Below, one piece after another: positions 18,674 through 27,311 of a stretch of 57,713 bases of DNA. Each line of letters begins with the position of its first letter. The first letter of the stretch is position 1. The notes beneath the pieces were generated by a model. It made no database searches, was not told where the DNA came from, and was given only the letters and a program-made list of their open reading frames with translations. The stretch covers positions 1 to 57,713 of IMG/VR virus record IMGVR_UViG_3300027865_000010; one strand, written 5' to 3'. This DNA is from a virus. The translations under genes and the position numbers were made by a program.

Positions 18674-18746
18674 CGGACGATAGCTCAGTTGGTAGAGCGC
18701 ATCCCTGATAAGGATGAAGTCGGAGGTTCAACTCCTTCTCGTCCGA
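18674..18746 (+). tRNA. tRNA-Ile (GAT)
   Basis: Acceptor CGGACGA/TCGTCCG, anticodon stem CATCC/GGATG with loop CTGATAA, T-loop TTCAACT. Fully paired acceptor. Lies between the coiled-coil terminator and the 18916 gene. Confidence 0.93.
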
Positions 18747-20071: not shown

Positions 20072-20341
20072 GTGTACGCGGTTATCCGCTGGACCCTGTC
20101 ACGTCTTTGGCGAGAACCGCCAGCAGAAGACTACCAACTTGATGACTTTGAGACCTGGTCGGGCGGTATGCGCCGTATCAATAGCTACGCCAGCGCGATG
20201 GCTGGCTTCGCTATGGGGCACTACTACGCGGCAGCCGAAGCCATTGACAACCTGCGAGTACGCAGCGACACTCGGGGAAACACCACCGAGGTTACAGTAG
20301 GCCAAGAGTCGGCCAACCCAGAAGTTGAGCAGCAGCAGTAG
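20072..20341 (+). CDS. Hypothetical protein, start uncertain
   Basis: About 89 residues from GTG 20072: DDFETWSGGMRRIN then an Ala-rich helix with HYYAAAEAIDN. The same frame is open upstream to about 19998 and encodes a Trp-rich piece (WRQLRYQPKWWLWRVYAV) that looks genuine, but no standard start codon lies there. The gene could start at a rare codon upstream. Unknown function. Confidence 0.55.
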   Translation: MYAVIRWTLSRLWREPPAEDYQLDDFETWSGGMRRINSYASAMAGFAMGHYYAAAEAIDNLRVRSDTRGNTTEVTVGQESANPEVEQQQ

Positions 20342-20351
20342 GAGGGCCACA

Positions 20352-21110
20352 ATGCCCACAAAGTTGAGTCAGATTGTCGCCGTAACGAACGGCAAGAAGA
20401 AACGCACCCAGGCGAAGATCACCGAGGTGTACCACAGGATCCAGAAGGACACCCTGTTCTCAGGCATCACCCGCGAGTACAGGCCCATCGATGACGAGGG
20501 CGTAGATCTTCCGCCGGAGTCCCGTGGCGTGCAGATGCAGGTCGCACATGCGGTCAAGCAGGTGGCGGATGCCATGACAGACCTGTTTGACACGGTCGCC
20601 ACACAAGACTATAACAACTGCACTGCGACGGCCCATGTTGTCGTCAACGGCAAGGTCATCCTGCGCGACGTTCCGGTTACCAATCTGCTCTTCCTGGACA
20701 AGCAGTTGGAAGACATCCGGACGTTCATCTCGAAGCTACCGCTTCTGCCGCCGGAGAAGGAGTGGGTATGGAGCACCGAGCACGGCTGCTTCAAGTCGAA
20801 GACGGAGGAGACAAGCAAAACCAAGCGCGTCCCGAAGGCGCACGTATTGTCCGAGGCTACGGAGCATCATCCGGCCCAGGTCAACGAGTTCCACGAGGAC
20901 GAGATCGTCGGTTGGTGGCACACCGTCCACCTGTCCGGCGCAATGCAGGCGCAGAAGCGCAGTGAAATGGTCGAGCGGGTGACGAAGCTGCACGACGCAG
21001 TCAAGTTCGCCCGACAGAAGGCCAACGAAATGGAAGTTACGTCGTACAAGGTCGGCAAGCCGATCTTCGACTTCATTTGCGAAGGAGCAACGCCACAGCC
21101 GGAAGGCTGA
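20352..21110 (+). CDS. Conserved actinophage-type protein (DUF7873-like)
   Basis: 252 residues beginning MPTKLSQIVAVTNGKKKRTQ, with LPPESRGVQ, an NLLFLDKQLEDIRTFISKLP block and IVGWWHTVHLSGAM near the end. From memory this is a widespread family in actinobacteria and their phages (I believe DUF7873), function unknown. ATG 20352 after AGGAGGGCCACA. It gives the clearest host hint in the window. Confidence 0.85.
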   Translation: MPTKLSQIVAVTNGKKKRTQAKITEVYHRIQKDTLFSGITREYRPIDDEGVDLPPESRGVQMQVAHAVKQVADAMTDLFDTVATQDYNNCTATAHVVVNGKVILRDVPVTNLLFLDKQLEDIRTFISKLPLLPPEKEWVWSTEHGCFKSKTEETSKTKRVPKAHVLSEATEHHPAQVNEFHEDEIVGWWHTVHLSGAMQAQKRSEMVERVTKLHDAVKFARQKANEMEVTSYKVGKPIFDFICEGATPQPEG

Positions 21111-21142
21111 TGGCTTTTCGAAGCTTAGACTGAGATTGAGGC

Positions 21143-21158
21143 TAAGAGGCGCATGCCT
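21143..21158 (+). repeat. 16-base repeat TAAGAGGCGCATGCCT, copy 2
   Basis: Identical to 690-705. Here it overlaps the putative 3' half of a permuted tRNA. Coincidence of a shared control element with tRNA sequence must be considered. Confidence 0.55.
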
Positions 21159-21266
21159 TTGAGCCTGGGTTCGAGTCCCAGGGCCGGTGACTAACATACT
21201 CCCTGACGTTCCATGAGGATGTCAGGTCACAATCACACCGGCTAGCCCAGTGGTCGAGGCAAGGCA
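21154..21266 (+). ncRNA. Possible circularly permuted tRNA (3' half before 5' half)
   Basis: 3' half: TGCCT at 21154-21158, a canonical T-arm CTGGG-TTCGAGT-CCCAG and acceptor GGCCGGT ending 21188. After 48 bases comes a 5' half: ACCGGCT at 21237-21243 (7 bp with GGCCGGT; 8 if C21236-G21189 is counted), D-arm GCC...GGC, then AGGCA at 21262-21266, which pairs with TGCCT as a 5-bp anticodon stem. The linker itself folds (CCTGAC/GTCAGG). Anticodon not determinable. No permuted tRNA is known to me in a phage, so confidence is limited. Confidence 0.4.
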
Positions 21267-21357
21267 TTGCCCATCAGACCCAGATTCTCGCTCCAAGCTG
21301 ACAACCCCGATACAGTCAGCCACATCATCAAGCGCCGTGCCATGACAACACATGGAT

Positions 21358-21440
21358 GGGAGTTCGATTCTCTCCCCCGGGCACTCGCTAACCAACCCAC
21401 AAGCCCGGGTCGTATAACGGTAATACAATCTGTTTGACAG
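21358..21440 (+). ncRNA. Second possible permuted tRNA
   Basis: T-arm GGGAG-TTCGATT-CTCTC and acceptor CCCGGGC (21376-21382), a 20-base linker, then GCCCGGG (21403-21409), canonical T8 and D-arm GTAT-AACGGTA-ATAC (21412-21426), then an anticodon-like AATCTGTTTGACAGACT. The acceptor halves pair perfectly only in this inverted order. The join in the anticodon/variable region is unresolved. Confidence 0.35.
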
Positions 21441-21537
21441 ACTAAAACCACGGCTTAAACGGATACAGGATGTGGCACGCATCAGTGCTAGTATCGAAAC
21501 CAGTCCGCTCCACTAGGTTAGCGTGGGGCGGACTCCA

Positions 21538-21610
21538 GTCCCTTAATCGTCCAATGGGCAGGACACCGGGCGGACACCCGGAGACGCCGGTTCGAACCCG
21601 GCAGGGGCAC
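21538..21610 (+). tRNA. Degenerate tRNA-like sequence
   Basis: Good D-arm (GTCCAATGGGCAGGAC) and T-arm (GCCGG-TTCGAAC-CCGGC), but the acceptor ends pair poorly and the anticodon region CCGGG-CGGACA-CCCGG has no T33 and an abnormal loop. Decayed tRNA or a part of a split/permuted gene. No amino acid assigned. Confidence 0.4.
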
Positions 21611-21647
21611 TTATCGGTGACCTTTGACTAAACGAGAAGGCATGGAG

Positions 21648-21679
21648 GTCTGTAACGGGTTCGAATCCCGGCCAAGCGC
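21648..21679 (+). other. Isolated T-arm-like 3' tRNA fragment
   Basis: ACGGG-TTCGAAT-CCCG followed by GCCAAGCGCC, with no matching D-arm upstream. The end pairs with the following GGCGCTT as a hairpin (AAGCGCC-ACC-GGCGCTT). Remnant tRNA or part of the next structured transcript's upstream terminator. Confidence 0.35.
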
Positions 21680-21709
21680 CACCGGCGCTTGTGCAAGCCG
21701 AACCGATTT

Positions 21710-21738: not shown

Positions 21739-21740
21739 CG

Positions 21741-22178
21741 AGCATACGTGTTCTTGCCAAAACACGTATGCTCCACTCTTTCGTACGTAAAGTGTCGTGT
21801 CTACTGGCAAGTGAGCTCAAGCGAACAGAACTCGTCCCTATCGCCGACGGTAGCGGGACTATGTTCGCGAGCGGCTTAAAAACGGATGTAAGGGCTCTGC
21901 GACAGTCGGCGCAACCCGAAGCATCTGTGCTTGGAGAGAGGGCCTTTCTGAGGACCCCGAGGGCCAAGCCGACGCTTCTTTCTACAGACGCTGGCCGAAA
22001 GGCAATCCGACAGGAATCACGCATAGTAGGGGAAGGCCAGTCCGATCCGAACCCGTTGATTCAGTCCGGTTCTGAACACCTATGGGGCAACATCGTCGGC
22101 TGGCCGTGTGTCGAAAGTGTTCATGGATGCCCAGAGGGTTAGTACAGCCCAGGGCGCGCATCCAAGCAGCGCCTTTTT
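21741..22178 (+). ncRNA. Large structured non-coding RNA (~430 nt)
   Basis: No convincing protein frame. It starts with a perfect hairpin AGCATACGTG/CACGTATGCT (21741-21772), then GCGAACA (21821) pairing TGTTCGC (21862) enclosing GTCCC/GGGAC and TATCG/CGGTA, then a three-way junction closed by GTCGGC (21905)/GCCGAC (21968) with hairpin AAGCA-TCTG-TGCTT, further stems CTGGCC/GGCCAG and GGATGC/GCATCC, and a terminator. Size, tRNA neighbourhood and ornate folding recall GOLLD or ROOL RNAs of phages, but I cannot match either consensus by eye. Confidence 0.6.
22153..22178 (+). terminator. Intrinsic terminator of the structured RNA
   Basis: Stem GGCGC/GCGCC (22153-22157/22169-22173) followed by TTTTT. 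Confidence 0.75.
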
Positions 22179-22208
22179 CTACAACCCAGAGAGGACCGAA
22201 GACTTCTG

Positions 22209-22412
22209 ATGCCATGTAAGTGTGGCCAGCCTACTGGCCCGTACGGCGACCTTTGTGAAGATTGCTGGGTCGCACGACAAACCTTCCGGAGCGTTGGTCC
22301 TACTCGGCGACCAGCACGACGGAATCGTCGCGCAATTTCGCGCCCACGCGGCACTGTGTCGCGCGGACCGCAGCCTGCAGCCGTTGAGGCCTTTGAGGCC
22401 CTGTTCAGCTAG
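22209..22412 (+). CDS. Small zinc-binding protein
   Basis: 67 residues. MPCKCGQPTGPYGDLCEDCW is a compact zinc ribbon of a kind common in actinophage small proteins; the rest is Arg/Pro-rich. A second plausible coding stretch follows in another frame (to 22573), so the original gene may have been longer and frameshifted. Confidence 0.6.
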   Translation: MPCKCGQPTGPYGDLCEDCWVARQTFRSVGPTRRPARRNRRAISRPRGTVSRGPQPAAVEAFEALFS

Positions 22413-22417
22413 TAGCG

Positions 22418-22573
22418 CACTACCACGCCACGCCTCTGAAGATCCTTGGCGTCGACGACAACGTCTTCGACACGCTCAAGGAGATGGTGCCAAGCATCGC
22501 AGCTCGGCTCCTGGACCCGCTGACAGGTGTCCGCGGCAACGGTCAAGACGTTGCGGAGACGACGCGAGTCTAG
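22418..22573 (+). pseudogene. Protein-like frame without a start
   Basis: The frame ending TAG 22571-22573 reads LKILGVDDNVFDTLKEMVPS... and looks genuinely coding, but has no start codon between the upstream stop and the helical part. Likely the 3' end of a broken gene, perhaps the frameshifted continuation of the 22209 gene or the remains of another. Confidence 0.4.
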
Positions 22574-22580
22574 CTGAACC

Positions 22581-22596
22581 TTGTTCAGCTGAACAA
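22581..22596. promoter_or_regulatory. Perfect palindrome TTGTTCAGCTGAACAA (site 2 of 6)
   Basis: Sixteen-base perfect inverted repeat after the broken frame and before the GC hairpin upstream of tRNA-Pro. Best example of the TTGTTC-N4-GAACAA family. Confidence 0.65.
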
Positions 22597-22628
22597 AATC
22601 AACGAAACTACGACCATTCGTGGTTTGG

Positions 22629-22664
22629 CCCGGGGCTCCTTCCTACCGAAGGGGAGCCCCGGGT
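22629..22664 (+). terminator. Strong GC hairpin before tRNA-Pro
   Basis: Eleven-base-pair stem CCCGGGGCTCC / GGAGCCCCGGG with a ~12-base loop, followed by TATTTCT. A terminator or tRNA-processing hairpin. Confidence 0.6.
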
Positions 22665-22670
22665 ATTTCT

Positions 22671-22744
22671 CGGGCATTGGGGAAGCCTGGTATCCCGCCT
22701 GCTCTGGGAGCAGGAAGGCGCTGGTTCAAATCCAGCATGCCCGA
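22671..22744 (+). tRNA. tRNA-Pro (TGG) with C33
   Basis: Acceptor CGGGCAT/ATGCCCG, D-arm GGGAAGCCTGGTATCCC, anticodon stem CCTGC/GCAGG with loop TCTGGGA, T-loop TTCAAAT. Position 33, nearly always U, is C here. Confidence 0.9.
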
Positions 22745-22774
22745 CTTTACAATCACTACAAAAAGGAGAGACAC

Positions 22775-23080
22775 ATGGCAAACTGGATCGCCCTTGAGGG
22801 TGACACACTGACTGATCTCAATGGCTTCGATCTGATCACTATCGACGCGTACGATACGGCAAACAAGGCGCCGCATGATGTAGACAACATGCCGCCTGGC
22901 CTGTCGGTTAATGACCCAGATCTGTGGATCATCCGCGCCTGGTTCCGCAGCGTAGACGATTGCCAAATCATTTTGGCGGCAGGCTCGGAGGCCTACTGCA
23001 AGCGGGTACATGCAGCAATTATCTACTCACTAAACGCACAAACCCTCACTGAGGTGCTCGAAAACGCCGGCAAAGCCTAA
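22775..23080 (+). CDS. Hypothetical protein (101 aa)
   Basis: ATG after AAAAGGAGAGACAC. Begins ANWIALEGDTLTDLNGFD, like an immunity- or scaffold-type small alpha/beta protein, but I cannot name a family. Its neighbour is a decayed gene. Confidence 0.75.
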   Translation: MANWIALEGDTLTDLNGFDLITIDAYDTANKAPHDVDNMPPGLSVNDPDLWIIRAWFRSVDDCQIILAAGSEAYCKRVHAAIIYSLNAQTLTEVLENAGKA

Positions 23081-23094
23081 CCTGCGAGGAAAGC

Positions 23095-23226
23095 ATGCAG
23101 ATCATCAGCGACTTCAAGGACTACTACGACGTAATCGCGTCGGCGGGGCAGGATCTGACGTTGAGGCCAAGGGCTTCGACCCGAAGTGGAGTTTCCGGAA
23201 GCCGCCCACCAAACACAGATGACTAA
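23095..23226 (+). pseudogene. Internally deleted phage gene (MQIISDFKDYYD family)
   Basis: The start MQIISDFKDYYDVIASAGQD matches a phage family I recall as ~200 residues long. After 20 codons the frame turns to nonsense, while another frame gives VEAKGFDPKWSFRKPP and a stop at 23222, the expected C-terminus of that family. The centre has been deleted and the join is out of frame. Confidence 0.6.
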
Positions 23227-25145: not shown

Positions 25146-25219
25146 TGCCCAGTAGGCAAGTGGCAGACCACCTGGACTTAAAATCCGGGATGCTGTGGGT
25201 TCGAATCCCACCTGGGCCA
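25146..25219 (+). tRNA. tRNA-Leu (TAA), short variable arm
   Basis: Anticodon stem CTGGA/TCCGG, loop CTTAAAA, variable GATGCT, T-loop TTCGAAT, A73. First acceptor pair T1 against C72 is a mismatch; the rest pair. Confidence 0.9.
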
Positions 25220-25223
25220 CTAC

Positions 25224-25298
25224 GGTCCGGTGCGTCCAATTGGCAGAGCGGCCCGGCTCAAAACCGGGCGGTTGTAGGTTCGAATCCTACCCGGACTA
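25224..25298 (+). tRNA. tRNA-Leu (CAA), short variable arm
   Basis: Acceptor GGTCCGG/CCGGACT, anticodon stem CCCGG/CCGGG, loop CTCAAAA, variable CGGTT, T-loop TTCGAAT, A73. Confidence 0.9.
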
Positions 25299-27145: not shown

Positions 27146-27218
27146 TACCCGGTAGCTCAATTGGCAGAGCGCAGGGTTTTGGTCCCTGAGGTTCCAAGTT
27201 CAAGTCTTGGCCGGGTTG
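27146..27218 (+). tRNA. tRNA-Gln (TTG)
   Basis: Anticodon stem CAGGG/CCCTG, loop TTTTGGT; D-arm GCTCAATTGGCAGAGC; T-loop TTCAAGT. First acceptor pair T1 against T72 is a mismatch. Confidence 0.9.
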
Positions 27219-27219
27219 T

Positions 27220-27291
27220 GGGCTATGAGTGTGATGGATCGCACGGCAGATTACGGATCTGCAAGAAGGGGTTCGACTCCTCTATGGCTCG
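27220..27291 (+). tRNA. tRNA-Arg (ACG)
   Basis: Acceptor GGGCTAT/ATGGCTC, D-arm GTGTGATGGATCGCAC, anticodon stem GCAGA/TCTGC, loop TTACGGA, T-loop TTCGACT. One base separates it from tRNA-Gln. A34 would need inosine editing by the host deaminase. Confidence 0.88.
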
Positions 27292-27311
27292 CTTAATTTC
27301 TTGCTCTTTTC

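What the first reader, a model, noticed from the sequence alone, without database searches (positions are those of the whole stretch)
21154..21440. Two apparent circularly permuted tRNA genes in tandem
In each case a canonical T-arm plus 3' acceptor precedes, by 20 to 48 bases, a D-arm with the exactly complementary 5' acceptor (GGCCGGT/ACCGGCT and CCCGGGC/GCCCGGG). In the first, anticodon-stem halves AGGCA/TGCCT also match and the outer flanks can pair further. Permuted tRNAs are known in some algae and archaea but, to my knowledge, not in phages. Bacteria lack the usual splicing endonuclease, so the molecule might act nicked, as a decoy or structural element.
Basis: partly seen in the sequence, partly recalled or inferred. 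Interest (0 to 1): 0.8.

Follow-up and report, generated by a model that had tools for sequence, protein, structure and literature searches.

The report
Twin tRNA-mimic RNAs beside DUF7873
The two 'back-to-front' tRNAs are real and conserved, but they look like a pair of tRNA-imitating noncoding RNAs (relatives of bacterial Y RNAs) that sit beside one uncharacterised protein gene in many phages and actinobacteria, rather than tRNA genes that must be spliced.

Summary
Window 21118-21298 and 21322-21474 each carry T-arm + 3' acceptor, a spacer, then 5' acceptor + D-arm, with perfect acceptor pairing. The layout is conserved directly downstream of one gene, DUF7873 (20325-21110), in relatives of this phage, in cultured phages of Gordonia, Rhodococcus, Arthrobacter, Rhizobium and Klebsiella, and in 80 of 80 sampled actinobacterial DUF7873 loci. 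Models built without the window find both units (59.0 and 48.5 bits, E about 1e-10). Acceptor, T, D and basal stems covary strongly, so these are not relics.

They are probably not permuted tRNA genes. The would-be anticodon loop shows no U33 and no purine 37, and the 'anticodon stem' continues into a long conserved basal stem. This is the architecture of bacterial Y RNA (Rfam YrlA), whose own consensus runs T-arm, acceptor, D-arm. YrlA matches cultured-phage units at 31-38 bits (E down to 1e-7), below its cut-off of 69. The usual partner, Ro60/TROVE, is undetected in 7 of 8 complete phages carrying the units, whereas DUF7873 is the constant neighbour.

Verdict: a tandem, DUF7873-linked, Y-RNA-like tRNA mimic: a new variant of a known kind. 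That DUF7873 binds it is inferred, not shown.

The parts
20325..21110 (+). DUF7873 protein (PF25283), likely ATG start 20352; constant upstream neighbour of the RNA pair
   Evidence: Pfam E 1.7e-94; orthologs in phages and actinobacteria; AlphaFold mean pLDDT 94.6, no PDB match at E<=0.001
21118..21298 (+). Unit 1: Y-RNA-like tRNA mimic (T-arm, acceptor, D-arm order) with basal stem
   Evidence: model R2 59.0 bits, E 5.7e-11, alignment; covariation
21164..21190 (+). Unit 1 T-arm, 3' acceptor GCCGGTG and next base
   Evidence: sequence; R2 alignment
21236..21266 (+). Unit 1 5' acceptor CACCGGC, D-arm, AC-like 5' strand AGGCA (pairs with TGCCT 21154-21158)
   Evidence: sequence; R2 alignment
21322..21474 (+). 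Unit 2: Y-RNA-like tRNA mimic with basal stem
   Evidence: model R1 48.5 bits, E 3.4e-11; covariation
21320..21339 (+). Unit 2 basal stem, 5' strand CCACATC-[ATCAAGC]-GCCGTG (consensus loop ATCGA)
   Evidence: single-strand fold of window pairs it with 21449-21475; consensus helices 1-2
21358..21383 (+). Unit 2 T-arm and 3' acceptor CCCGGGC
   Evidence: sequence; R1 alignment
21403..21426 (+). Unit 2 5' acceptor GCCCGGG and D-arm
   Evidence: sequence; R1 alignment
21449..21475 (+). Unit 2 basal stem, 3' strand CACGGC-[TTAAACGGATACAG]-GATGTGG with conserved CTTAAACG
21502..21534 (+). 3' hairpin, 12-bp stem (92% complementary), loop TAGGTTAGC; a GGNTA loop recurs in relatives
   Evidence: I6; GGNTA in 73 of 117 loci that have a strong 3' hairpin

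Best explanation
The region encodes a tandem pair of anticodon-less tRNA mimics of the bacterial Y-RNA architecture, coupled to DUF7873. Each unit folds as a T-arm, a 7-bp acceptor stem closed by a spacer, and a D-arm, stacked on a long two-strand basal stem where a tRNA would have its anticodon arm. No splicing or re-joining is needed: the apparent permutation is the native topology of this RNA class. Inferred mechanism: transcription downstream of DUF7873 gives one roughly 400-nt RNA carrying both mimics and a 3' hairpin; a protein, most likely DUF7873, grips the conserved internal loops of the basal stems (ATCGA facing CTTAAACG in unit 2); the tRNA-like heads then recruit or occupy tRNA-handling factors, or tether an RNase as Y RNA does with PNPase. 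Shown: position, predicted structure, conservation, linkage to DUF7873, lack of an anticodon. Inferred: transcription, DUF7873 binding, molecular function.
For: Same order directly downstream of DUF7873 in the window's relatives G005/G002, G006 and G009, further huge phages, cultured phages, 80/80 actinobacterial loci and 75/80 viral contigs, with 0 and 3 hits in the upstream controls. Models made without the window find both window units. Covariation: unit 2 97.2% paired cells against 72.9% shuffled, 26 of 29 pairs with double changes, acceptor helix 100%, slid controls 39-45%; unit 1 97.8% against 82.7%, acceptor 100%. No anticodon: U33 23/122, purine-37 58/122. YrlA CM (RF02553) aligns full length over the T-arm, acceptor, D-arm and basal stem of Gordonia phage Phendrix (37.1 bits, E 9.6e-7) and hits the units of other cultured phages (Kp24 37.9, TM30 35.9, Talia1610 32.9, Ziko 31.3 bits). 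Linkage: of 60 sampled genomes of one class, the 4 with DUF7873 are the 4 with R1 matches above 110 bits, each about 200-270 nt downstream. Neighbouring genes differ between genomes, so DUF7873+RNA looks like a free-standing module.
Against: No RF02553 match in the window units themselves at E<=10, and no unit reaches the Rfam gathering score; tandem ordinary tRNAs also give weak RF02553 matches (11 of 14 control genomes ring below the cut-off). TROVE-linked Y RNAs in the same genomes have a different basal-stem sequence, so homology to YrlA beyond the tRNA-like module is unsure. 79 of 202 distinct units encode CCA right after the 3' acceptor, a real-tRNA trait that a pure mimic need not have. 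DUF7873 occurs without any detectable unit in a few phages (L047/L048, L066, L071). No expression or binding data.
Confidence: 0.78

Rival explanations
1. True circularly permuted tRNA genes: the pre-RNA folds, an endonuclease and ligase (or a ribozyme) join the 5' half to the 3' half at the anticodon arm, and RNase P and a 3' nuclease then free the acceptor ends, as in red algae and some archaea.
For: Order and acceptor pairing fit; AC-like stem 5/5 paired in 122 of 202 units against 11 of 202 at a control position; CCA encoded in 79 of 202; some phage unit-1 copies look like tRNA-Leu with a long variable arm (G005; L051/L052).
Against: Positions 33 and 37 are random; loop lengths on both sides vary and no anticodon is conserved; the basal stem beyond is conserved and covarying, which an intron-like flank need not be; no group I intron or other splicing ribozyme family matched at E<=5.
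Confidence: 0.1
2. A canonical Y RNA of Ro60 (Rsr): DUF7873 is only a neighbour and the real partner is a TROVE protein from phage or host.
For: RF02553 similarity; TROVE present elsewhere in G006, G009, G015-G017, several actinobacteria and Rhizobium phage TM30; in TM30 the TROVE gene lies about 6 kb from the DUF7873 unit.
Against: No TROVE match in complete phages Phendrix, NiceHouse, Talia1610, Ziko, D470, FBKp24, Y1_11, nor in 4 of 10 actinobacterial genomes tested; different basal-stem sequence from TROVE-linked Y RNAs; DUF7873 linkage is exact in the sampled set.
Confidence: 0.15
3. Relics of two broken tRNA genes in a decaying tRNA array.
For: Degenerate tRNA-like sequence does lie just downstream (21540-21607, 32.8 bits; 21640-21690).
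Against: Strong compensatory covariation and conservation across phages and actinobacteria.
Confidence: 0.01

Closest known systems
Bacterial Y RNA, YrlA (Rfam RF02553), partner of Ro60/Rsr and PNPase
   Same: T-arm, acceptor, D-arm order on a basal stem with an asymmetric internal loop; tRNA-like domain; no anticodon (PMC8394870 describes the module and its binding to Rsr and PNPase)
   Different: Two units in tandem in one locus with a 3' hairpin; linked to DUF7873, not regularly to TROVE; below the RF02553 cut-off; basal-stem motif ATCGA / CTTAAACG; CCA often encoded after the 3' acceptor
Circularly permuted tRNA genes of red and green algae and some archaea (PMC3978253, PMC3218864)
   Same: 3' half precedes 5' half, complementary acceptors, short spacer that can include CCA
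   Different: Those carry an anticodon and a BHB splice motif at the junction; here no anticodon signal and a conserved basal stem
Permuted two-piece tmRNA (alphaproteobacteria, cyanobacteria; from general knowledge)
   Same: Permuted tRNA-like domain without an anticodon
   Different: No tmRNA found by ARAGORN; canonical D-arm present; no tag reading frame recognised
YrlA-like RNAs near TROVE genes in the same Streptomyces and phage genomes (L247-L253)
   Same: tRNA-like module matched by model R1 (32-49 bits)
   Different: Basal stem carries GGTTACTTC-like sequence instead, and most matches cover only the tRNA-like module

Membership tests
Bacterial Y RNA (YrlA) | tRNA-like module (T-arm, acceptor, D-arm) on a basal stem | tested here: met
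Bacterial Y RNA (YrlA) | Score above the Rfam gathering threshold (69 bits) | tested here: not met
   best DUF7873-linked unit 37.9 bits; no RF02553 match over the window units
Bacterial Y RNA (YrlA) | Encoded with a Ro60/TROVE protein | tested here: not met
   TROVE undetected in 7 of 8 complete phages that carry the units; the window itself is a fragment
Bacterial Y RNA (YrlA) | Physical binding by Ro60/Rsr and PNPase | not testable with these tools
   needs pull-down
Circularly permuted tRNA gene | 3' half upstream of 5' half with complementary acceptor stems | tested here: met
Circularly permuted tRNA gene | Anticodon loop (U33, purine 37) restored on joining | tested here: not met
   U33 23/122, purine-37 58/122 over distinct related units
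Circularly permuted tRNA gene | BHB splice motif at the junction | tested here: inconclusive
   no BHB-like regularity seen by eye in alignments A5/A6; no formal BHB search run
Circularly permuted tRNA gene | Circular or joined RNA product | not testable with these tools
   needs RNA-seq
DUF7873 (PF25283) | Profile match above the curated cut-off | tested here: met
   316.5 bits against 27
Ro60/TROVE fold for DUF7873 | Structural similarity to solved Ro60 | tested here: inconclusive
   no PDB match at E<=0.001; best VIA match 3kdq_A Z 9.0, rmsd 8.7 over 147 residues

The most novel reading that the evidence does not exclude
DUF7873 is a Ro60-independent Y-RNA-type RNP protein that carries a two-headed tRNA mimic. 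Because many units encode CCA at the acceptor end, and two phages nest a complete tRNA-Thr inside the acceptor loop (whose excision would open it), the acceptor ends may be opened by tRNA-processing enzymes and present a true CCA end, giving anticodon-less tRNA-like molecules that act on charging, CCA addition, ribosome or RNase systems.
Probability: 0.2. Interest if true: 0.85.

Novelty: new variant of a known kind. Interest (0 to 1): 0.62.

Why it matters
A conserved, seemingly unannotated noncoding RNA sits in the roughly 300-500 nt 'empty' gap after DUF7873 in cultured phages of Gordonia, Rhodococcus, Arthrobacter, Rhizobium and Klebsiella and in many Streptomyces and related genomes. It extends the Y-RNA/tRNA-mimic theme to a locus without a regular Ro60 gene, offers a candidate function for DUF7873 (RNA binding), and gives tractable phage and actinobacterial systems in which to ask what tRNA mimics are for. 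It also warns that permuted-tRNA signatures in bacteria can be tRNA mimics rather than spliced genes.

Tried and rejected
Group I intron (permuted intron-exon) hypothesis: the flank helices first suggested a shared catalytic core, but no group I, group II or other catalytic RNA family matched the window at E<=5 and there is no anticodon to restore. Permuted tmRNA: ARAGORN negative. Broken tRNA relics: refuted by covariation. DNA-level similarity searches in phage records found nothing at this locus; the protein route worked. The single-protein scan for DUF7873 in viral contigs found no relative; an alignment was needed. DUF7873 fold: Foldseek top rows were Pur-alpha at E 0.1-0.3 and TM 0.1-0.2, too weak to use; TROVE/Ro60 is not among the listed rows, which does not exclude it. 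I first took the RF02553 hit at G021 C8:445629 as DUF7873-linked (a notebook entry still says so); one search places DUF7873 of that genome at C6:216720, so the C8 hit is a separate Y-RNA-like locus. Paper searches for permuted tRNA in phages and for DUF7873 gave no prior report; the library lacks the main Y RNA papers, so prior mention there cannot be excluded.

Full report
Observation. In unit 1 a T-arm and 3' acceptor GCCGGTG (21164-21189) precede 5' acceptor CACCGGC and a D-arm (21236-21260); in unit 2 a T-arm and CCCGGGC (21358-21382) precede GCCCGGG and a D-arm (21403-21426). ARAGORN and default Rfam see nothing there, while calling 16 tRNA-like genes elsewhere in the window. The window is an IMG/VR virus fragment.

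Relatives. A terminase scan found relatives. Four contigs among them, two nearly identical to each other (G002, G005), encode the protein just upstream of the finding, 20325-21110. In all of them the same two permuted units follow that gene. Acceptor pairs differ between phages yet stay complementary: unit 1 CACCGGC/GCCGGTG, GTCCGTG/CGCGGGC, TGTGGGG/CCCCACA, TATGGGG/CCCCATA; unit 2 GCCCGGG/CCCGGGC, GGCCGGG/CCCGGCC, GCCCCGG/CCGGGGC, GGCCCGG/CCGGGCC.

Breadth. The protein is DUF7873, PF25283. It occurs in 73 cultured-phage records. In Gordonia phages Phendrix and Ziko, Rhodococcus NiceHouse, Arthrobacter Talia1610, Klebsiella FBKp24 and Rhizobium TM30 and Y1_11 the unannotated gap after the gene holds one or two such units (confirmed by models R1 or R2); Vibrio D470 has one weak match (21.8 bits). 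A scan of bacterial genomes gave 80 actinobacterial loci: all 80 have at least one unit within 900 nt downstream and 56 have two, with no hit in the upstream control; of 80 further viral contigs 75 have at least one, with 3 control hits. A few viral hits far downstream may be tandem ordinary tRNAs, which give the same signature (window 25195-25250).

Models. R1 (unit 2, 36 sequences) and R2 (unit 1, 41 sequences) contain neither the window nor the annotated cultured-phage records. R1 finds window 21322-21474 at 48.5 bits, E 3.4e-11, including CTTAAACGG. R2 finds 21118-21298 at 59.0 bits, E 5.7e-11 over 194 kb. Covariation on A5: 97.2% of cells paired against 72.9% after shuffling and 39-45% when slid; 26 of 29 pairs have double changes; the acceptor helix is 100% paired; the two basal helices (columns 4-9/144-149 and 17-23/125-132) are 97.7% and 91.5% paired with double changes in 12 of 13 pairs. 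On A6 the T, acceptor and D helices are 99-100% paired. The window's own fold pairs CCACATC/GATGTGG and GCCGTG/CACGGC around the conserved internal loop of unit 2 (z -4.6 for the 423-nt region).

Not tRNA genes. In 122 distinct units with a perfect 5-bp stem where the anticodon stem would be, the base at position 33 is T in only 23 and the base at 37 is a purine in 58, that is, random; U8 is present in 201 of 202 (U8 was rewarded and the T-loop required by the finder, so those two are not independent). A joined product would therefore have no anticodon. The stem leads instead into a conserved basal stem.

What it resembles. A permissive Rfam scan of actinobacterial loci returned YrlA, the bacterial Y RNA, on unit 2 (35.4, 32.9 and 27.6 bits). 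For Phendrix the alignment is full length and shows that the YrlA consensus itself runs basal strand, T-arm, acceptor, D-arm, basal strand. Across 27 records DUF7873-linked units score up to about 38 bits and TROVE-linked Y RNAs in the same genomes 25-44 bits, all below the cut-off of 69 (control genomes also give weak hits). So the permuted look is the normal topology of this class. PMC8394870 describes YrlA as a tRNA-like D/T/acceptor module on a basal stem that binds Rsr and PNPase.

What differs. TROVE is undetected in seven of eight complete cultured phages with units and in several actinobacterial genomes, though present in others. DUF7873 is the constant neighbour: in 60 genomes sampled from one class, the four with DUF7873 are the four with R1 matches above 110 bits, each about 200-270 nt downstream; every other match is at most 52 bits. 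Pfam hits of genes beyond the pair differ between genomes. The basal motif differs from that of TROVE-linked Y RNAs. There are usually two units plus a 3' hairpin with a GGNTA loop in 73 of 117 loci. CCA follows the 3' acceptor in 79 of 202 distinct units, well above the roughly 2% expected from base composition (my estimate). In G006 and G009 a complete tRNA-Thr lies inside the acceptor loop of unit 1.

Partner protein. DUF7873 is predicted with high confidence (mean pLDDT 94.6) as an alpha/beta protein without a significant PDB match. Binding to the RNA is inferred from linkage only.

Conclusion. Best reading: a tandem, anticodon-less, Y-RNA-like tRNA mimic coupled to DUF7873. It works like a Y RNA in architecture, but I do not file it as YrlA, because the score and Ro60-association tests were not met. 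Function (RNase tether, tRNA-enzyme decoy, or other) is open.

Noticed in passing
window 22158; L003 10671-11193: L003 is 100% identical to the window over 22158-23100 (and carries the same tRNA order further on) but has a different sequence, with a tRNA-Ala(TGC), upstream of 22158: a recombination or replacement breakpoint inside the RNA-rich region.
   Followed up: partly
window 21540-21690: A degenerate tRNA (32.8 bits, 21540-21607) followed by an orphan T-arm and a perfect 8-bp hairpin CAAGCGCC-ACC-GGCGCTTG.
   Followed up: partly
window 21740-22180: Noncoding stretch with a perfect 13-bp inverted repeat (21740-21773) and a second structured segment ending GCGCCTTTTT; short blocks (GGCCGAAAGGC, GGATGCCCAGAGGG, GCATCCAAGCAGCGCC) recur in the otherwise different L003 sequence, suggesting another RNA.
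   Followed up: no
L044 4072-4144, L045 3867-3941: A complete tRNA-Thr(TGT) gene sits inside the acceptor loop of unit 1 in two relatives.
   Followed up: partly
L075 4012-4091 (Klebsiella phage FBKp24): The annotated tRNA-Sup-TTA starts between the two units and runs into the T-arm of unit 2, so it is probably a misannotation.
   Followed up: partly
L247 1479-2030 (G016), L242 1354-1574 (Rhizobium phage TM30): Several Y-RNA-like units lie in series near TROVE genes in phages.
   Followed up: partly
G021 C8:445629-445742 (Streptomyces dioscori): Y-RNA-like match (39.3 bits) away from both the TROVE gene and DUF7873 of that genome, a possible further class.
   Followed up: no
control genome Deinobacterium chartae: Rings for both DUF7873 and TROVE, so the two can coexist outside Actinobacteria.
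   Followed up: no
window 27202-27292: ARAGORN calls a tRNA with a four-base anticodon reading (gatg), overlapping tRNA-Gln.
   Followed up: no
window 18681-18732: The tRNA-Ile gene shares about 51 bases at 90.6% with Prevotella Lak phages, the only phage DNA match in the array.
   Followed up: no
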